23,750 nt of DNA from a virus: IMG/VR virus record IMGVR_UViG_3300048928_000138, positions 1-23,750 of that record; one strand, 5' to 3'. The notes beneath the pieces are model-generated. The model worked only from the letters and a program-made list of their open reading frames with translations. It was not told the DNA's origin and searched no databases. Within the stretch, counting starts at the first letter, position 1. Every line of letters starts with the position of its first letter. The position numbers were made by a program, and so were the translations under genes. This document shows positions 7,548 through 20,963 of the stretch, one piece after another.

Positions 7548-7751
7548 TTAGGAGCTTATACCACAACGCCTTTGCAGCTCTTCGGATGACATTTCGTTGT
7601 GCCATTTCCACCTGGGCTCCAACTGCTCCCATAGCAAATCGCTCATACGCACGCCGTTGCTCTCCGCTATCGCCCGAAGGGTCGGCAGTCGAAGGATACG
7701 CCCACTGACAATAGTTTCCGCGATCTTTGGGTCAAAGGTCCAATTGTTCAT
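7548..7751 (-). CDS. Minus-strand moron in the head operon, unknown function (67 aa)
   Basis: The ATG at 7751 has a perfect GGAGG six bases upstream, strong evidence of a translated gene although it runs against the late operon. The gene fills exactly the gap between the gp10-like gene (stop at 7547) and the protease-scaffold start (7781). The product is Trp-rich (four Trp) and helical; residues 23-42 (LPTLRAIAESNGVRMSDLLW) look like a short helix-turn-helix or degenerate XRE-type segment, and two Cys-free charged helices follow except for one Cys near the end. I recognise no family. Position, orientation and its own translation signals mark it as a moron, possibly expressed from the prophage. 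A regulatory or superinfection role is speculation. Confidence 0.65.
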   Translation of the reverse strand: MNNWTFDPKIAETIVSGRILRLPTLRAIAESNGVRMSDLLWEQLEPRWKWHNEMSSEELQRRCGISS

Positions 7752-8916: not shown

Positions 8917-9390
8917 ATGGCACTTACTTTCAAGGAAAATCTCGCCGCCTTTGCTGTTGGCCGTCGCGTCAACATGGAAGAGTGGAACGCTATCACGCGT
9001 ACACTTGAAGGCACCACGGCGCTCGGCTTTGGCGTTCCGGCTGTTGCAGGTACAGGAGCACATAGCTGTGTTCCACTCACTGCTGCAGATCAGAATGTCC
9101 TCGGCATCACTGAGGCCAGTGTGGTTCTGCCACGCCCCGGCGATCAGTACGCTCAGTATGACAACGTAGCGATCTGCGAAAGCGGCGTTATCGGCGTCCT
9201 GCTTGGCGCAAACGTCGCCAAGGGAGCTCAGGCTCGCTTCAATACTGCAAACGGCACTTGGACCGGTGCGGCTGCTTCGGCAACCGTTCTGACCATTCCC
9301 GGCGCGCAGTTTGAAGAGGCTGGCACTTCCGGCGCAGTCGGCGCAGTCCGCTACCGCCGTCCGATCCCATCTCTCGCAACTGGAGCTTAA
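8917..9390 (+). CDS. Capsid cement/decoration protein
   Basis: A 157-aa beta-rich, Gly/Ala/Val-rich protein placed directly before the major capsid gene, the usual place for the DUF2190/Gp24-like structural cement protein that coats and stabilises the head. Features include RRVNMEEWNAITRTLEG near the N-terminus and the GVLLGANVAKGAQARFN segment, which resembles DUF2190 beta repeats. The ATG at 8917 is chosen for AAGGAGG just upstream; ten residues of upstream extension would overlap the previous gene's end. Four bases separate its stop from the capsid start. Confidence 0.75.
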   Translation: MALTFKENLAAFAVGRRVNMEEWNAITRTLEGTTALGFGVPAVAGTGAHSCVPLTAADQNVLGITEASVVLPRPGDQYAQYDNVAICESGVIGVLLGANVAKGAQARFNTANGTWTGAAASATVLTIPGAQFEEAGTSGAVGAVRYRRPIPSLATGA

Positions 9391-13153: not shown

Positions 13154-13161
13154 GGTGATTG

Positions 13162-13557
13162 ATGAGCAGCCCAAACTTAAAGGCTGAGGTTATTCTGACG
13201 TGGGGTGACGGGGACTACCTGTTCGCCCTGCGTGGGAAAGAAATCGAAGAGCTGGAACATCAGTGCGGCAAAGTCGGTGTAGGCGCTATTTATCAGCGTG
13301 TCGTGATGGGCGTCTGGTTTTGGGGTGATCTTTACCACATCATCAGGCTGGGCTTAATCGGAGGAGGTACAGGCGCGGTCGAAGCAAAGCGACTTGTTGA
13401 TATGTATGTCGGCAAAGAAAAAGCGTCTATTCCATTGGTGACCGGTCCTAACAGCCCCGAAACCGTTGCTCAAGCAATTCTCAATGCTGCGTTTCACGGC
13501 GTCGGAGAGATTAACTCGGGGGAGCCGAAAGCCGGGGAAGCCCCGGCGACCGCATAG
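13162..13557 (+). CDS. Tail assembly chaperone, GTA gp10-like (G-type)
   Basis: The 131-aa product fits the GTA/Phage_TAC_11 type of chaperone that coats the tape measure protein during tail assembly: LTWGDGDYLFALRGKEIEEL, then a helical middle and RLGLIGGGTGAVEAKRLVDM, with the conserved GLIGGG. The end (from about residue 110) is a Gly/Pro/Ala/Glu-rich linker that stops at TAG 13555-13557. The ATG at 13162 follows GAGGTG; a TTG one codon earlier is possible. A -1 frame continues past its stop (see next feature), as in gpG/gpGT of lambda. Confidence 0.85.
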   Translation: MSSPNLKAEVILTWGDGDYLFALRGKEIEELEHQCGKVGVGAIYQRVVMGVWFWGDLYHIIRLGLIGGGTGAVEAKRLVDMYVGKEKASIPLVTGPNSPETVAQAILNAAFHGVGEINSGEPKAGEAPATA

Positions 13558-13769
13558 AGTTCGGCTCATATCGAGCGGCTTTCGTCCGCGCAGGTGTCGA
13601 TCCAAGAGCGATTGACACTATGAGCATGTACGAGATCGTGAGCACGAATGTTGCTCTTCAGAAAATGGATAAGAAGCAAATGCCTCAAGTCACGGACGAA
13701 GACTGGGCAGAAGCTGAAGCTATGCTTGCTTCCGTGACGATAAACGATCCATCGGTCCAAATTGGATAG
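13515..13769 (+). CDS. Tail chaperone C-terminal extension, probably by -1 frameshift (T part)
   Basis: In the -1 frame relative to the chaperone gene, the last in-frame stop is TAA 13512-13514 and the frame then stays open to TAG 13767-13769. Its first ATG is 13620, well inside the conserved-looking part, which begins about 13557 (IEFGSYRAAFVRAGVDPRAI, then DTMSMYEIVSTNV). No usable start precedes that, so fusion by -1 slippage is the simplest reading, giving a G-T protein. A run of five G at 13518-13522 is the best slippery candidate, allowing the Gly tRNA on GGG to re-pair one base back; it is not a classic X-XXY-YYZ heptamer. Position between chaperone and tape measure is exactly where such products lie. 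Confidence 0.7.
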   Translation, partial: LGGAESRGSPGDRIEFGSYRAAFVRAGVDPRAIDTMSMYEIVSTNVALQKMDKKQMPQVTDEDWAEAEAMLASVTINDPSVQIG

Positions 13770-13793
13770 AGTACAGATAACTCTAAACGCGGA

Positions 13794-14081
13794 CTAATGA
13801 ATCCATTCTATAGTATCGCAGTTGCGAACCACGATTTTCGTCAATTGGGCCTCATCGTTCTTGTTGGGCCGCGTACTATAAAACGGACCGCAGAACGATC
13901 GAACTTTTTTCGTTTCATATGATCCCGCTGGCGCGAACTTATGAAGTCGTTTCGTTGCGCCATCTTCGATTGCCTTGGTCTGATGCTTCTCACTGCCTTG
14001 CGCGGCAGAAGCCAAGTATATGCCAGCCGCTGTTATCGCAGCGCCAGCCGTAGCCATCGAGAATTTTAACCAGTTACCCAA
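13794..14081 (-). CDS. Minus-strand moron encoding a small exported protein (95 aa)
   Basis: A TTG start at 14081 has AGGGGG six bases upstream, read on the minus strand. The product has a short polar N-terminus (MGNWLKF), a hydrophobic helix (about residues 8-27, with AAITAAGIYLASAAQ) and a basic, polar exterior part with two Cys (C64 and C88 approximately), so it is probably exported or membrane-anchored. An ATG eight codons later lacks a ribosome site. The gene lies opposite to the late operon between the tail chaperone and the tape measure gene, with only 11 bp between its start and the tape measure ATG. Superinfection exclusion or cell-surface change is a plausible moron role but is inference. 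Confidence 0.6.
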   Translation of the reverse strand: MGNWLKFSMATAGAAITAAGIYLASAAQGSEKHQTKAIEDGATKRLHKFAPAGSYETKKVRSFCGPFYSTRPNKNDEAQLTKIVVRNCDTIEWIH

Positions 14082-14092
14082 GTGAGCCCCCT

Positions 14093-16318
14093 ATGGCCCT
14101 AACTGCTGATCAAGTTGTCGTTGAGCTCAAAGCTGAAGTCAACGCTTACATGCAAAATGTGGGCAGAGCTCAAACTGACTTCTCTCAGAAGATAGGAAAA
14201 ATGAGCGAAGATGCGGTTAAGGCCGGTAATGCATCTGCCGTCGCATTCAACAGCGCAACAGGAGCTTTCGAGAAGGCCGCGCCAGCAATCAAGAAGACCG
14301 GCGAACAGTCAAAAATGGCGCAGCAGCAAATGCGCAATCTCGCATTTCAGTTCCAGGATATCGGAACAATGCTTGCGGCAGGCCAATCACCGTTCATGCT
14401 GCTCGCACAGCAGTTGCCACAGGTGACAATGTATGGCGGGCAGATGACTGGTGTCATGGGCGCGCTTAAACAGACGGTTTCAAGTCTGATTAGTCCTCTC
14501 GGTATCGCGACAACGGCGTTCGTCGTTCTTGGATCGGCAGCCATCAGCTATTTTGATACTTGGTTCCAAGATGCGCCCGATATGGAGGAAATTCTAAAAA
14601 AGCATAAGTCAAACATTGATGCTTTGGGTCCTTCATACAAGCAAGCAATTGAAGACGCTAAGAAATATATCGAGCAAAATCAGGAAGTGGCGAAAGCCCT
14701 GTCGGAAGCTATCTTTGCCGACGCTAAAAAGACAGCGACTCAAGACGCCAAGGACTTGGTAAGCGAAGTCGGTAAGGCCATTGCATCTGCGTTAAGTGGC
14801 GCAGGTATAATGACATTCGATGGCGCTGGCGCTTTCCAGCCGCTTGTAGAAGCCTTTGAGAGGTTCAAGGCCTCGGTTGAGGCGGGAACGCCTGACATTG
14901 CTCGGCTTAGGGAGGAGATTGTTAAGGCTGGCAATTCGGATGCCTCAATCAAAAAGCTGTCTCTCTCTCTTTTGCAGCTAACAAACGATGCGAACGGTAC
15001 TGCTAATATCGTTTCGGGAATTGAAAAGGCGCTTGATCCTGTTGCTCTTGCCGTAGATCGTTTTTCGCAAGCGGTGGACAATGTCAAATCTGACGAGGCC
15101 AGAAAGGAGCTTTCAGCGTTTGAGGATAGGCTGGCAACCGGTAAAGTCTCGATTGAGGAAGTCGAGCAAGCGATAAACAGTCTGTCCGGGCGTTATCCCG
15201 ATCTTTCATCGGCACGTCAGGAACTACTTACGCTCGCGGCGGCAGCCATTCAGGCAAGAGATAGCATAAGCCGTGTTGTCACCACACCAAAAGGCGATGC
15301 TCTTCCGGGTCCAGGTCAGGACAAACGCTCAAAAGAACAGTCCGAATACCTCAGTGACCAACTCTCGCTGTGGCGAAGGATGAATCCAGAAGCTTTCAAG
15401 CTGGAAAAGACCCTTGAGCGGCAGAACAAACAGCTCGATAAGCAGGATAAGAAGAAGAGTAAAAAGGATAAAACGGATTCGTGGGATCGTTACAATCAGC
15501 GTCTTCAAGACAATATCGACCTTGCAGAAACTGAGTACACCGTCCAGCTGAAGCTGAACCCACTCGTTGAAGATTATGGGTATGCCCTCGAATACAATCG
15601 AGTTTATCAGGAAGGCTTGAACGCAGCTCGGAAAGCTGGCCGCACGCTAGATGCTGAAGAGTTGAAAGCACTTAGTGAAAAAGCTGCCTACCTCGCGATG
15701 GTGAAGGCTGGAACCGATCAAGTGCAGGAAGCTCAAGATCAGGCAAGGCAGGCTGCAGACTTCTTTAAAGACAGCATGTTTGATGCTTTCCAGTCGCTTG
15801 TACCTGCAATCGAAACCGGTAACAAAGCACTGGATCGCTTTCTGAATACGCTCATCGACACCGTCCTGCAGGCTGCGCTTCTGGGCAAAGGGCCTTTGGC
15901 GGGAATATTTGGTTCAGGTGGGGGAAGCGGCGGTCTATTCGGGTCACTGTTGGGTGGTCTGTTCCGAGAAAATGGCGGGCCAGTTAAAAAGGGCCAACCA
16001 TACATCGTGGGAGAGAAGCGCCCCGAAGTATTTGTTCCTGATCAGAATGGCACCATCTTGCCAAGAGTTCCTTCCGTGTCAGCGCCAACGTCGCCTGTGA
16101 CATCAGCGATAACGGGAGCCGCTGGTACAGCAAAAGCTCATGTGACAGTTGGCGTTAGCGTAGATACCGACGGCAACCTTCGAGCTTTTGTGAAGGACAT
16201 TGCCCAAAGAGAATCTGTTTCCACCAGTCGCGCTGCAATAGCGGCTTATGATAAAGGCGGGGCAGTCCGCACAGCCCGTGATCTTCGTCAGGTTAGTTCG
16301 AGAGGAATGGCAAAGTAA
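14093..16318 (+). CDS. Tail tape measure protein
   Basis: Sets tail length and is carried inside the tube. The 741-aa protein has a long helical N-terminus, the conserved block MRNLAFQFQDIGTMLAAGQS then PFMLLAQQLPQV (residues 80-111), a hydrophobic segment (about 132-154), a long helical middle, a Lys-rich stretch near residues 440-465, and a Gly-rich C-terminus with LFRENGGPVKKGQPYIVGE and EVFVPDQNGTI. By the usual relation of about 0.15 nm per residue the tail would be near 110 nm. The ATG at 14093 is only 11 bp from the divergent moron start. Its stop overlaps the next start (TAATG). Confidence 0.92.
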   Translation: MALTADQVVVELKAEVNAYMQNVGRAQTDFSQKIGKMSEDAVKAGNASAVAFNSATGAFEKAAPAIKKTGEQSKMAQQQMRNLAFQFQDIGTMLAAGQSPFMLLAQQLPQVTMYGGQMTGVMGALKQTVSSLISPLGIATTAFVVLGSAAISYFDTWFQDAPDMEEILKKHKSNIDALGPSYKQAIEDAKKYIEQNQEVAKALSEAIFADAKKTATQDAKDLVSEVGKAIASALSGAGIMTFDGAGAFQPLVEAFERFKASVEAGTPDIARLREEIVKAGNSDASIKKLSLSLLQLTNDANGTANIVSGIEKALDPVALAVDRFSQAVDNVKSDEARKELSAFEDRLATGKVSIEEVEQAINSLSGRYPDLSSARQELLTLAAAAIQARDSISRVVTTPKGDALPGPGQDKRSKEQSEYLSDQLSLWRRMNPEAFKLEKTLERQNKQLDKQDKKKSKKDKTDSWDRYNQRLQDNIDLAETEYTVQLKLNPLVEDYGYALEYNRVYQEGLNAARKAGRTLDAEELKALSEKAAYLAMVKAGTDQVQEAQDQARQAADFFKDSMFDAFQSLVPAIETGNKALDRFLNTLIDTVLQAALLGKGPLAGIFGSGGGSGGLFGSLLGGLFRENGGPVKKGQPYIVGEKRPEVFVPDQNGTILPRVPSVSAPTSPVTSAITGAAGTAKAHVTVGVSVDTDGNLRAFVKDIAQRESVSTSRAAIAAYDKGGAVRTARDLRQVSSRGMAK

Positions 16319-16929: not shown

Positions 16930-17495
16930 TGGCTTTTCCAGCACGTCTGCAACAGCTTCTAAACGAGGGCAGAGGCAAGATTGCTTCTGCCGTCAAATTT
17001 GAGTTTGGCACCGGAACGTATGGCTTCTTCGCAGGCAAGGGCAGTATCGATTATGGCGGTTTGACCTATCACGGCAATACGCTGATCGATATTGACGAGC
17101 CTGTCTATGCGCTCGGAACCGCTGCGCAGCCGATCACAATGAAGCTGCCCGCTAAATCTGACTTCGGCCTCACACCTGACAAGCTCGGTCTGATCGAACA
17201 GGAGGATTACAAAAACCGACCTGTTACGTTCTACGACTTCTACTTTGACCCGGACAACAACGCCTTTCTCCATGCTGAACCGACGTTCTACGGCTATGTG
17301 GATGTCATTGATCATCGCGAAGAAGGTGACGAAGTCTGGCTGGAAGGGCATATCGAAACCGGCGCGGTCGATAACTTCCGGGAAGGGTATCGATATGCAT
17401 CGCATGAGGATCAGCAGCTCGTTTCACCGGGCGACATGTTCTTCGAATATGCAGCAAGGATCAAAAATGAATTCTTCAAAATCAAATTTGGCTAG
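16929..17495 (+). CDS. Baseplate hub-type protein (188 aa)
   Basis: A beta-rich protein in the position of the GTA gp13/DUF2163 or lambda L-type hub protein, just before an NlpC/P60-like gene. Readable pieces are KIASAVKFEFGTGTYGFFAG, SIDYGGLTYHGNTLIDIDEP and NRPVTFYDFYFDPDNN, a pattern of strands reading 'gldYdGltY.g..l..i' typical of such hubs. It ends in a helix (FFEYAARIKNEFFKIKFG). Its end overlaps the next gene by 29 bases. It probably links the tube to the J-like tip. The family name is inferred from position and pattern. Confidence 0.65.
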   Translation: MAFPARLQQLLNEGRGKIASAVKFEFGTGTYGFFAGKGSIDYGGLTYHGNTLIDIDEPVYALGTAAQPITMKLPAKSDFGLTPDKLGLIEQEDYKNRPVTFYDFYFDPDNNAFLHAEPTFYGYVDVIDHREEGDEVWLEGHIETGAVDNFREGYRYASHEDQQLVSPGDMFFEYAARIKNEFFKIKFG

Positions 17496-17904
17496 GGTGC
17501 CTGGTTGGGACCGGGCGGTTGAAGATCTTGCTTCTCAGCATGTGAATATTTTGCCGGAGTGGGGAAAATCCGACTGTCTGATGTGTGCTGCCGATGCGAT
17601 CAAGGCGGTTACAGGGATTGATCCACTCTTGAAGTTTCGTGGGAAGTATCAGACTGAAGCCGGGGCAGCGCGAAAGATGCGCCAGAACGGCTGCAAGAAC
17701 GTCAAAGATGTGTTCGAGACCTATCTTGGCCTTGAGCCTGTCAATTGCCTCTCCGCGCGCCGTGGCGACGTTGGCGTCATGAAACTGAACGGGGAGTATG
17801 TCGCCGGTTTCATTTGTAGTTCTGGCTTTGCAGTCAAACAGCCACAAGGGTTGACATTCTTTCCGGTTACGGAAATCGAGCAAGCCTACACTGTAGGCGA
17901 ATAA
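17467..17904 (+). CDS. NlpC/P60-like tail tip protein (DUF6950 type)
   Basis: The 145-aa protein sits between hub and J-like genes, where phages place a tail-tip peptidoglycan endopeptidase. EWGKSDCLMCAADAIKAVTG (residues 31-50) is the Cys-containing helix of the fold, with C37 as candidate nucleophile; RGKYQTEAGAARKMRQNG and RRGDVGVMKLNGEYVAGF follow. The usual catalytic His after the GDV strand is not visible, as in DUF6950 proteins, so hydrolase activity is open. The ATG at 17467 has AAGGA upstream and lies inside the preceding gene. An 80-base gap with no visible gene follows. Confidence 0.75.
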   Translation: MNSSKSNLARVPGWDRAVEDLASQHVNILPEWGKSDCLMCAADAIKAVTGIDPLLKFRGKYQTEAGAARKMRQNGCKNVKDVFETYLGLEPVNCLSARRGDVGVMKLNGEYVAGFICSSGFAVKQPQGLTFFPVTEIEQAYTVGE

Positions 17905-17984
17905 CAGCACCGACAATTTGCAATGACCAAGGCTCGTACCAGTGGCGGGCCAGCTTTGTTGCATTCATTTGCAAGGTTTATCTC

Positions 17985-20963
17985 ATGCCATTTCTTGCGC
18001 CTGTCGCTGCTTGGATCGGCGGAATTGTCTCGAGCGTGGCTGCATGGGCTGCCGCTAGTCCAATTCTTGCCGGTATCGCACAAACAGCCTTCGGCATTGC
18101 GCTGAAATATGCGGTCAACGCGCTGTTTCCGCCAAAGACACAAAGCCGTGCATCCGAGCTGGAAACGCAATATGGCGCAAACATTCCGCGCTCGGTCATT
18201 CTCGGCACCTGCGGGATTGAAGGGCATCATGTCTACCGGAATAGCTACGGCTCTGGGGGCAGGCTTATTCAGGACGTTTTTGCTCTTGCTAGCTTTCGTA
18301 TCACAGCCGTTCCGCGTGTTCGATACAACGGCGCATGGCGCGTTCTGGCAGAGCAAGATGCTGATGGTTATTGGCTGGTCCCTAACGAAGGCACAAGTGG
18401 CGATGACCATGACAACGTGCGCGTCAAATTCTACTACGGCACTATGGATCAGCAGGCCGACGCGACACTGATTAATCGTGCGCGTCCAGCTGGTCGTTGG
18501 ACCGCAAACCACCGTGGCGCAGGCGTTGCTTATGCGATTGTGTTCTCCGAACTGCGCAAGAACGGCGATGGCCTCACTTCTCCGGCAAAGTTGCTGTTCG
18601 AAGTCGTCGGCGCTCCGCTTTACGATTGGCGAAAAGACAGCACTATGGGCGGTTCAGGTCCTCATCGGTGGGATAATCAGAATACTTGGGAATACAGCGA
18701 TAATCCCGCGGTTCAAATTTACAACCTCGAACGCGGCTTCTTCAACGGTTCTCAGCGCATGGTTGGCAAAGCCGTTCGCGCAAGCCGACTACCTTTGGCA
18801 GAATATACGCAAGCTGCGAACATCTGCGACGAAGTGATGTCCGACAACACGAAACGTTATCGGTCAAACGCAATCGCAAAAGATGGCCCCGGTGCCAACC
18901 ATGATGCGAACCTCACGCCAATTCTTGAAGCGATGTGCGGTTCTTGGGTCGAGCGCGTTGATGGTGAGTTTCCGATTGCTGGCGCGCCACAAGCTATCGT
19001 GGCGACTATTACGGACAGTGATGTCAAGAAAGGCGCACCGCTCCGCATGAGCGTAAAGCGGAAGCGGACTGAGCTGATCAACACGGTCGCTGCGTCTTAT
19101 ATCTCAGCAGAAGATTTCTATGAAACGAAAGACGCCGCAACCCGCATCGACACAGGCGCTTTAGCAGAAGACCGCGAAACGCTTGCCAGTGCTATCCCAT
19201 ATGGCGCTGTCACCGATCCTAAGCAGGTTGACCGTCTCGCAGATATTGCCATTCGTGGCGCTCGCTATCAGGCGTCTGCCGAGATTACCGTTCATCCGAA
19301 GTTTCTTGATATGATCAAGGAAGGACGGTGGCTTCGTTGGAACAGCGCGAAGTATGGCGACCGAACGTTTCAGGTTCTCACGCGCCAGCTCGGCGGCATT
19401 AATACGGATGGCGCGCGTGATATCTCAATTGCGTTGCAGCAGATCAGCAACGGCGTATTCGATCCGACTGCGTATGAAACTAACCCTCCGAATATCGTGG
19501 TGGTTCCTCCGCCTCAGTATCTTGCTGAGGTTCAGAACTTCGATGTGCTGCCGATTATCGTTAAGGCTGACGGAGGTGGGGAGCTTCCGGGCGCACGCCT
19601 TCTCTGGGATCAGATTGACGATATTTCAGTTGTTGGCGTCGACATTGAATATTGGCCCGCCAATGACCCGACACAGGTGTTTAAGCGGTTTGTTACTTGG
19701 GATGTCACCAATGTCATCCTTGTGGAAGGGCTGACATCGCTCACGGATTGGTTTGTTCGAACCCGACTTCGTGTTGATAATGGCCGCTCTGTGTCTTGGT
19801 CTGCGGCAACGCCGTTTCGCACACTCAATGCGAATAACGGTAATCCCATCGATTACGAGGGGCTTGACGATGATCTGAAAGGTTATCTAGGCTGGATTGG
19901 TCCGCAGATGCGTGAAATCATCCGTCAGGCGGAAGAACTTGCGACAACGACATCTGACAACCACAACGCAAACTATGCAGATATCCAGCGTTTAAGCCGT
20001 CAGCTTACCAGCACGTTCAGCAATGCGCAGGCGAGCTGGCAAGAAGACATCCTTGTCGCAACTGGTCCAAACAGTGCAATTGGTCAGCAGCTTATCCGCA
20101 TCAATGCGCAGCTCTGGGATAATACCGGTGCTAGCATCGTCCAACTTCTTCAGGCCAGAGTTGATGGCGTTGAAGATGAGGTTGAAGCTCAGGCAACGGC
20201 AATCACCAGCCTGACGACTGTTGTGAACAATGTCAGCGCAAATGCGACATTCAGAATGGCAAGCTCAGTTGCGCCGTCTGGCTGGAACTCTCGTATCGGT
20301 ATGCAGGTTGAGGGCGGGACAGTTGGCGACTGGAAGAGCGCCGGACTGTTTCTGGATGTCAACAATACACAGGCCCGCATAGCGCTGATGGCTGCGCAGA
20401 TTGTTTTCACCAACGGCACTGAGTTTTTTCACCCGTTCGTCATTCAGAACAACGTCATGTATGGCGAAGGCTTCGTCATGGACTGGGCGAAGATCGTGAA
20501 TGTATCGATCGAGTGGGCGCAAATTCAGAATGCTGTGATCGACAATCTGATTGTGGGAACAAGCAACCTCGACTTCAACGCTGTGACGGGAACGACCGAC
20601 ACGTCGTACAATATCAACACGTCAGTCAATGACGTTACCTTAAGCTCATTCGTGATCAACAGCCCGCAAGGCAACACGATTTTGCTGGATTGGTACGTCA
20701 ATGCCACCCTGACCATCGTTGGCGGTTCAACGCAGTCAACGACCACGATATCGCTTATCAATACCACTACAGGGGCTGTCATTCGACAGTTCAGCTATGG
20801 TCTCACCACCGGTCAGAGCACAGCGGTTTCGATCAACACGGCAGCTATTGATAGCAGCGCGGTTCGTGGGAACAATACCTATCAGGTCAGAAAGACCAAC
20901 AACCAGACCGGAACGAACTTAAGCGGTTCAGGAAATCTGAAATCGCTCGTCTGGAAACGCTGA
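17985..20963 (+). CDS. J-like host specificity / tail tip protein
   Basis: At 992 aa this is the large central tip protein that contacts the host. The N-terminus is strongly hydrophobic (residues 1-48, FLAPVAAWIGGIVSSVAAWA), as is common in this class. Next come tip domains with RSVILGTCGIEGHHVYRNSY, then WVERVDGEFPIAGAPQA, a fibronectin-like part around 520-620, and a coiled coil near residues 645-745. A DUF1983-type section (FRMASSVAPSGWNSRIGMQV, GLFLDVNNTQ) follows, and last a Thr/Ser/Asn-rich beta tip that likely determines receptor binding. The ATG at 17985 has AAGG upstream. A separate fibre gene follows after 59 bases. Confidence 0.88.
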   Translation: MPFLAPVAAWIGGIVSSVAAWAAASPILAGIAQTAFGIALKYAVNALFPPKTQSRASELETQYGANIPRSVILGTCGIEGHHVYRNSYGSGGRLIQDVFALASFRITAVPRVRYNGAWRVLAEQDADGYWLVPNEGTSGDDHDNVRVKFYYGTMDQQADATLINRARPAGRWTANHRGAGVAYAIVFSELRKNGDGLTSPAKLLFEVVGAPLYDWRKDSTMGGSGPHRWDNQNTWEYSDNPAVQIYNLERGFFNGSQRMVGKAVRASRLPLAEYTQAANICDEVMSDNTKRYRSNAIAKDGPGANHDANLTPILEAMCGSWVERVDGEFPIAGAPQAIVATITDSDVKKGAPLRMSVKRKRTELINTVAASYISAEDFYETKDAATRIDTGALAEDRETLASAIPYGAVTDPKQVDRLADIAIRGARYQASAEITVHPKFLDMIKEGRWLRWNSAKYGDRTFQVLTRQLGGINTDGARDISIALQQISNGVFDPTAYETNPPNIVVVPPPQYLAEVQNFDVLPIIVKADGGGELPGARLLWDQIDDISVVGVDIEYWPANDPTQVFKRFVTWDVTNVILVEGLTSLTDWFVRTRLRVDNGRSVSWSAATPFRTLNANNGNPIDYEGLDDDLKGYLGWIGPQMREIIRQAEELATTTSDNHNANYADIQRLSRQLTSTFSNAQASWQEDILVATGPNSAIGQQLIRINAQLWDNTGASIVQLLQARVDGVEDEVEAQATAITSLTTVVNNVSANATFRMASSVAPSGWNSRIGMQVEGGTVGDWKSAGLFLDVNNTQARIALMAAQIVFTNGTEFFHPFVIQNNVMYGEGFVMDWAKIVNVSIEWAQIQNAVIDNLIVGTSNLDFNAVTGTTDTSYNINTSVNDVTLSSFVINSPQGNTILLDWYVNATLTIVGGSTQSTTTISLINTTTGAVIRQFSYGLTTGQSTAVSINTAAIDSSAVRGNNTYQVRKTNNQTGTNLSGSGNLKSLVWKR

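What the first reader, a model, noticed from the sequence alone, without database searches (positions are those of the whole stretch)
13794..14093. Second antisense moron: exported protein at the chaperone/tape-measure junction
This minus-strand gene has a TTG start whose AGGGGG site overlaps the complement of the tape measure start region (ATG 14093, 11 bp away). The product carries a hydrophobic helix and two Cys outside the membrane. Two independent antisense insertions in one late operon, both with strong ribosome sites, suggest lysogen-expressed functions such as superinfection exclusion.
Basis: partly seen in the sequence, partly recalled or inferred. Interest (0 to 1): 0.5.

Follow-up and report, generated by a model that had tools for sequence, protein, structure and literature searches.

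The report
Antisense membrane-protein gene beside tape measure
A small membrane-protein gene runs backwards between two tail genes of this bacterial virus; similar or unrelated exported proteins sit backwards in the same slot in several phages of Rhizobium and related bacteria, which suggests a swappable trait that may block rival phages.

Summary
A TTG-start, 95-codon frame (13794-14081, minus; "AS") fills the gap before the tape measure gene, with an AGGGGG site, a hydrophobic helix and Cys64/Cys88. It is a real gene: 8 of 9 viral loci found by searching with the neighbouring chaperone carry an antisense gene with the same start and anchor here, under purifying selection where measurable (dN/dS 0.10 in one close pair; weaker, 0.72, for the window's copy against L003). 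Relatives lie at the same place in cultured rhizobiophages RHph_Y3_1, AP-16-3, NV1.1.1 and 16-3 (unannotated there). RHph_X2_25 and Paracoccus phage Pkon1 hold unrelated antisense exported proteins in the slot; six other cultured phages examined have none. The anchor is kept while the exported part is exchanged. L003 and L005 add an antisense lipoprotein gene, which the window's lineage probably lost.

Best explanation: an antisense moron expressed from the prophage, most likely superinfection exclusion at DNA injection, working like HK97 gp15 (same slot, sense strand, no sequence similarity). Function is inferred: AS does not track the tape measure, and no promoter or terminator above chance was found for the window's copy. 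Spanin and purely antisense-RNA roles are less likely.

The parts
13794..14081 (-). AS: 95-aa antisense gene, TTG start, N-terminal hydrophobic anchor, Cys64 and Cys88
   Evidence: homologs with open frames at the same place
14087..14092 (-). AGGGGG ribosome site of AS, abutting the complement of the tape measure ATG
   Evidence: sequence; an SD-like site in the same position in relatives
14007..14069 (-). codons 5-25 of AS, predicted membrane helix
   Evidence: hydropathy; helix 5-25 in a low-confidence model (pLDDT 50)
14080..14086 (+). AAGTGAG, likely ribosome site of the tape measure gene, overlapping the complement of the AS start codon (14079-14081)
   Evidence: read from the sequence; inference
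13763..13818 (.). 56 bases (end of AS and spacer) that replace 509 bases of L003 holding an antisense lipoprotein gene and a terminator-like hairpin
   Evidence: direction of the change inferred
13620..13769 (+). 49-aa gene after the chaperone, conserved in relatives (pS 0.54, pN 0.04 against L003)
13159..13557 (+). tail chaperone / GTA-gp10-like gene (Phage_TAC_11; phrog_8985)
14093..16318 (+). tape measure gene (TMP_2; phrog_8892)

Best explanation
AS is a real protein-coding gene, carried as an antisense moron in a slot between the chaperone region and the tape measure gene of alphaproteobacterial siphophages, some of them temperate. Shown: the gene, its place and orientation, the conserved start and anchor, the exchange of the part after the anchor. 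Inferred: it is transcribed from the prophage while the late operon is silent; its product sits in the inner membrane (or is exported) with a small, perhaps disulfide-bonded domain in the periplasm, in some relatives with a lipoprotein partner; and there it obstructs DNA entry of competing siphophages at the step where the incoming tape measure protein crosses the periplasm and inner membrane, as proposed for HK97 gp15.
For: Antisense gene with the same start and anchor in 8 of 9 loci found with the chaperone as query (with 13, 23, 32 for individual loci); purifying selection in L013-L027 (14 synonymous, 5 nonsynonymous changes, dN/dS 0.10) and codon-position pattern 31/17/69 in L031-L041; annotated or open homologs at the same place in RHph_Y3_1, AP-16-3, NV1.1.1 and 16-3; unrelated antisense exported-type proteins in the same slot in RHph_X2_25 and Pkon1; antisense lipoprotein genes behind AS in L003 and L005; integrase in 4 of 11 contigs; promoter-like site just before AS in 16-3; [quoted passage not shown]
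Against: No expression or phenotype data. AS does not co-vary with the tape measure protein. No homology to gp15 or to any PADLOC defence model; no Pfam family above cut-off. No promoter or terminator above chance for the window's copy; in L003 the terminator-like count as a whole is not above shuffles (3 found, 4.2 expected). The window's copy shows weak constraint against L003 (dN/dS 0.72 over 95 codons; pN 0.056, pS 0.093 over the 88 shared codons). Seven of 11 contigs show no integrase (several are fragments). Six cultured phages with a related tape measure have no antisense gene there.
Confidence: 0.5

Rival explanations
1. An envelope moron that gives the lysogen another benefit (surface change, stress or symbiosis trait), not phage exclusion.
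For: Same anatomy and exchange of cargo; no co-variation with the tape measure; the CGxVNAKN domain of the L028 and Pkon1 proteins also occurs in PAJU2 gp26 and SEN5_30, away from this slot.
Against: Repeated use of the tape measure junction, where HK97 also keeps an exclusion gene.
Confidence: 0.27
2. Spanin-like or spanin-derived lysis protein (inner-membrane part, with the lipoprotein of L003/L005 as outer part).
For: Membrane protein plus lipoprotein in L003 and L005; weak matches to Rz-like spanin profiles (window phrog_1026 E 0.18; L003 lipoprotein phrog_3198 E 0.0024; L044 phrog_5151 E 0.014); phrog_12535, which strongly matches the protein behind the endolysin in G001 and also hits AS weakly; the AS profile reaches that protein in G002 at E 8e-6.
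Against: Contig G001 has an endolysin followed by a phrog_12535 protein and an overlapping lipoprotein frame elsewhere. Profile alignment covers 23 columns, the membrane helix, probability 21%; BLASTP none. The phrog_12535 search also rang in 8 of 14 control genomes at the loose cut-off used. AS is antisense to the late genes; most relatives and the window lack the lipoprotein gene.
Confidence: 0.1
3. The RNA matters: the AS transcript, complementary to the tape measure start, represses the tape measure gene of self or related phages (like STnc6030 of BTP1).
For: Interlocked start regions with 10-15 nt between the two starts in nine contigs; more identical codons in tape measure codons 1-20 than downstream in six pairs (for example 17/18 against 229/396; pairs not independent, not tested statistically); precedent STnc6030 (PMC7067206, passages).
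Against: Protein-level purifying selection. In 16-3 the promoter-like site lies between the genes, so that transcript would not cover the tape measure start. STnc6030 has no ORF over 60 aa, whereas here a conserved protein is encoded.
Confidence: 0.1
4. Spurious open frame without product.
For: About 1% of random gaps hold such a frame (46 of 5000); weak constraint between window and L003.
Against: Homologous open frames at the same place beside tape measures as little as 23% identical to the window's, dN/dS 0.10 in one pair, SD-like sites kept, annotated homologs in cultured phages.
Confidence: 0.03

Closest known systems
HK97 gp15 (superinfection exclusion moron)
   Same: Small predicted inner-membrane protein in the slot between chaperone and tape measure genes (PMC10883804 passages)
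   Different: gp15 is on the sense strand and followed by an annotated terminator; no sequence similarity (E 0.23 over 12 residues); exclusion not tested here
HK97 gp23 ('reverse moron product')
   Same: Antisense moron inside the tail operon (annotation)
   Different: Lies between the I-like and J-like tail genes; no comparison of sequence made
P22 SieA; Ltp of TP-J34; Sie2009
   Same: Prophage-encoded membrane or lipoprotein blocks of DNA injection (PMC10883804 passages)
   Different: Other sizes, places and hosts; no similarity found in the family searches made
STnc6030 of BTP1 (antisense RNA exclusion)
   Same: Transcript antisense to a DNA-injection gene inside the late genes, excludes self phage (PMC7067206 passages)
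   Different: Reported as non-coding; here a conserved protein is encoded
Rz/Rz1 spanins (phrog_12535, phrog_1026 types)
   Same: N-terminal membrane helix; a lipoprotein gene follows in L003 and L005
   Different: Similarity confined to the helix; a lysis cassette lies elsewhere in G001

Membership tests
Phage moron | Extra gene between two genes that are adjacent in related phages | tested here: met
   HMSP1-Susan: small gene ends 4987, tape measure starts 4992; phi3LM21: 2353 and 2360
Phage moron | Own promoter and terminator | tested here: inconclusive
   Window: 1 promoter-like site (1.0 expected), about 350 nt upstream; no terminator-like hairpin after AS. 16-3: promoter-like TGGACA-17-GATAGT just upstream. 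L003, L005: hairpins after the lipoprotein gene
Phage moron | Expression from the otherwise silent prophage | not testable with these tools
   No transcript data
HK97 gp15-type exclusion protein | Position between chaperone and tape measure genes | tested here: met
HK97 gp15-type exclusion protein | Sequence relationship to gp15 | tested here: not met
   BLASTP E 0.23 over 12 residues
HK97 gp15-type exclusion protein | Small inner-membrane protein | tested here: inconclusive
   Hydropathy 1.40 in the window, up to 2.39 in relatives; low-confidence helix 5-25; a cleaved signal peptide is not excluded
HK97 gp15-type exclusion protein | Blocks DNA injection, with escape through tail tube or tape measure genes | not testable with these tools
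   Needs plating and DNA-entry assays; indirect sign against: no co-variation of AS and tape measure
Rz/Rz1 spanin pair | Similarity to spanins beyond the membrane helix | tested here: not met
   23 columns, probability 21%; BLASTP none
Rz/Rz1 spanin pair | Place next to the endolysin, in the late direction | tested here: not met
   AS is antisense at the tape measure; in G001 the spanin-like pair follows the endolysin
Antisense-RNA exclusion (STnc6030 type) | Non-coding transcript | tested here: not met
   Protein-level selection in relatives

The most novel reading that the evidence does not exclude
The start of the tape measure gene in rhizobial and related siphophages is a dedicated, exchangeable immunity slot: an antisense gene whose start region interlocks with that of the tape measure gene, with a fixed membrane anchor and swappable periplasmic domains (sometimes plus a lipoprotein) that stop DNA entry of rival siphophages, the overlap helping to keep the immunity gene and the tape measure gene from being expressed together.
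Probability: 0.3. Interest if true: 0.7.

Novelty: new variant of a known kind. Interest (0 to 1): 0.5.

Why it matters
It points to an insertion slot that several unrelated exported-protein genes have used, always backwards in the cases listed here, in alphaproteobacterial phages, including an unannotated gene in the long-studied phage 16-3. Position and product type allow a direct, cheap exclusion test in a laboratory rhizobial system, and a kept anchor with exchanged domains could show how injection-blocking proteins diversify.

Tried and rejected
The genome-contig scan with the AS alignment found no relative among 133 candidate stretches; the second, with the tape measure alignment, gave one distant Caulobacter locus, where I saw no comparable antisense gene. 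Searches of 385 genomes of the class with the major tail protein (1 hit, E 4.7e-26), AS alignment A7 (0 hits) and the L027 tape measure (0 hits at E 1e-20), and of 7 genomes of one order with A7 (0 hits), gave no AS, so the window's host is not identified; the tools warn that an empty answer there shows little. tblastn of the window's own AS in phages and plasmids: no match. The cultured relatives appeared with the L041 member as query at E 0.003 (RHph_Y3_1, Y3_56_1) and 0.1-0.5 (AP-16-3, two records of 16-3, NV1.1.1); I accept these because place, strand and anchor agree. The seventh record, Lactococcus phage PLG-II (E 0.7), and RHph_Y3_56_1 were not inspected. Structure model of AS: pLDDT 50, pTM 0.28, not searched further. 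PDB sequences: nothing below E 0.18. Promoter inside the window's tape measure codons: TTGACT or TTGACA stands upstream in several relatives, but I found no convincing -10. RHph_Y3_1 has TTGTCA-18-TATAAG by eye only; the scan did not list it. 16-3 immX was considered and rejected: it is annotated at 18306-18740, AS lies at 9037-9204. caveats: for L033 my tape measure start was wrong (the script shows ACG), so its junction is read; for L027, L028 and RHph_Y3_1 the script reports a longer frame from an earlier start than the one I use. Its 23 records (15 with an antisense gene, 8 without, HK97 among the latter) are not a random sample; the chaperone search (8 of 9) is the fairer count. Y3_1, 16-3, AP-16-3, NV1.1.1, L041, L044 and L024 were found with AS itself as query.

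Full report
Observation. The frame is as described: minus strand 13794-14081, TTG, 95 aa, AGGGGG 5 nt before the start, 11 nt between its start codon and the tape measure (TMP) ATG, one hydrophobic stretch, Cys64 and Cys88. The likely TMP ribosome site (AAGTGAG, 14080-14086) overlaps the complement of the AS start codon, and the AS ribosome site abuts the complement of the TMP ATG, so the two start regions interlock (read). By chance about 1% of such gaps would hold a frame this long (46 of 5000).

It is a gene. Searching viral contigs with the chaperone gave 9 loci. Eight carry an antisense gene with the same start and anchor at this junction (contigs of L002, L003, L005, L013, L027, L028, L029, L031; in L028 the part after the anchor is unrelated); L033 does not. 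Searching with the gene itself added L041 and L044 at the same junction, and L024 at another place beside a Dam-methylase-like gene (identified from its sequence by recall, not by a search). L044 has a quite different TMP (19-25% identity over the aligned parts). Between L013 and L027 there are 14 synonymous and 5 nonsynonymous changes (dN/dS 0.10); L031 and L041 differ at 31, 17 and 69 first, second and third codon positions (dS is saturated in that pair and in most others). TMP pairs that could be measured gave 0.16-0.26. The window's copy against L003 is less constrained: dN/dS 0.72 over 95 codons, including the replaced end, and pN 0.056, pS 0.093 over the 88 shared codons, against pN 0.007, pS 0.127 for the chaperone. 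The window's own copy may be under relaxed or diversifying selection.

Cultured relatives. With L041 as query the phage collection gave RHph_Y3_1 and Y3_56_1 (E 0.003) and, weakly, AP-16-3, 16-3 and NV1.1.1 (E 0.1-0.5). The four phages inspected (RHph_Y3_1, AP-16-3, NV1.1.1, 16-3) have the gene antisense between the chaperone region and TMP, and all begin M-x-x-WLK-x-LI-x-x-AC. In 16-3 it is 9037-9204, complement, 55 aa, not annotated, with a promoter-like TGGACA-17-GATAGT just upstream (2 sites in the stretch, 0.2 expected). RHph_X2_25 and Paracoccus phage Pkon1 hold unrelated antisense genes with signal-peptide-like starts in the same slot. Pkon1 p57 shares a CGxVNAKN domain (phrog_2320) with the L028 protein and with PAJU2 gp26 and SEN5_30, which lie away from this slot. 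HMSP1-Susan, phi3LM21, Lucius, RC1, Ssp-JY39 and Nsp-JY10 have no antisense gene annotated there.

Exchange. Members fall into types: window, L002, L003, L029, L031, L041, L024 and, more distantly, L044 (two Cys 24-30 residues apart near the C-terminus); L005, L013, L027 and RHph_Y3_1 (shorter, two Cys 16-18 residues apart, then G-x-I and YRA); L028 (CGxVNAKN domain); 16-3 (55 aa, no Cys after the helix). Type does not follow the TMP: L029 and L027 share 80% of TMP but 33% of AS; L031 and L041 share 33% of TMP but 62% of AS. This looks like exchanged cargo. L003 and L005 follow AS with an antisense lipoprotein gene and a terminator-like hairpin; L041 with another antisense frame of 174 aa; L028 and L031 have a sense gene of 208-209 aa in the slot. 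The window has 56 bases where L003 has 509. Because L003 and L031 share the AS ending LMP and the window does not, loss in the window's lineage is the likelier direction; this is inference.

Mechanism. Four of 11 contigs have an integrase (several contigs are fragments), so at least some of these phages are temperate. A gene antisense to the late operon would suit expression in the lysogen, but there are no expression data. The product is a predicted membrane-anchored or exported small protein. HK97 carries gp15 in the same slot; [quoted passage not shown] PMC13190303 (passages) shows the tape measure protein as a target of another membrane defence, SNIPE. I therefore favour exclusion at injection, at 0.5. 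Against it: no AS-TMP co-variation, no homology to gp15 or PADLOC models, no promoter or terminator above chance for the window's copy.

Rivals. A spanin role is unlikely: G001 has an endolysin followed by a phrog_12535 protein and an overlapping lipoprotein frame elsewhere, and the profile similarity to AS is confined to the helix. But the AS profile does reach the G002 counterpart at E 8e-6 and phrog_12535 reaches AS in G004 and G005 at 1e-4 to 1e-3 (the same search rings in 8 of 14 control genomes at its loose cut-off), so a distant common origin is not excluded. A pure antisense-RNA role, as for STnc6030 (PMC7067206, passages), is weakened by selection on the protein and by the 16-3 promoter-like site lying between the genes. 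More identical codons in TMP codons 1-20 fit an overlapping element, but the pairs are related and no test was made.

Literature. Eight searches, combining moron, tape measure, opposite strand or direction, reverse orientation, antisense, rhizobium, exclusion and phage 16-3, listed no paper that I recognised from title or abstract start as describing this slot. The passages read in the AP-16-3 paper (PMC10460002) do not mention it. Only open-licence papers are held, the listings were read and not the papers, and the HK97 gp15 paper was not held. So novelty in print is likely, not proven.

Noticed in passing
window 7548-7751 (-): 67-aa antisense frame with a GGAGGA site between two head-region genes; the identical protein, also antisense, is in contig G003, absent by this search from 8 other related contigs.
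   Followed up: partly
L004 7831-8799 (window 16922/16929): About 970 bases inserted in the 97.8%-identical relative between the distal tail gene and the next tail gene, with two antisense frames (84 and 121 aa); the window has no insert there.
   Followed up: partly
window 17482-17964 (-): Long minus frame opposite a plus-strand gene with a DUF6950 match; probably a shadow.
   Followed up: yes
L051 3967-3989 (-): RHph_Y3_1 has a 9-pair sense-strand terminator-like hairpin just before the tape measure start, between it and the antisense gene.
   Followed up: no
   Followed up: no
NC_011103 9037-9204 (complement): Unannotated gene in Rhizobium phage 16-3, annotated as hypothetical in AP-16-3 and NV1.1.1.
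   Followed up: yes
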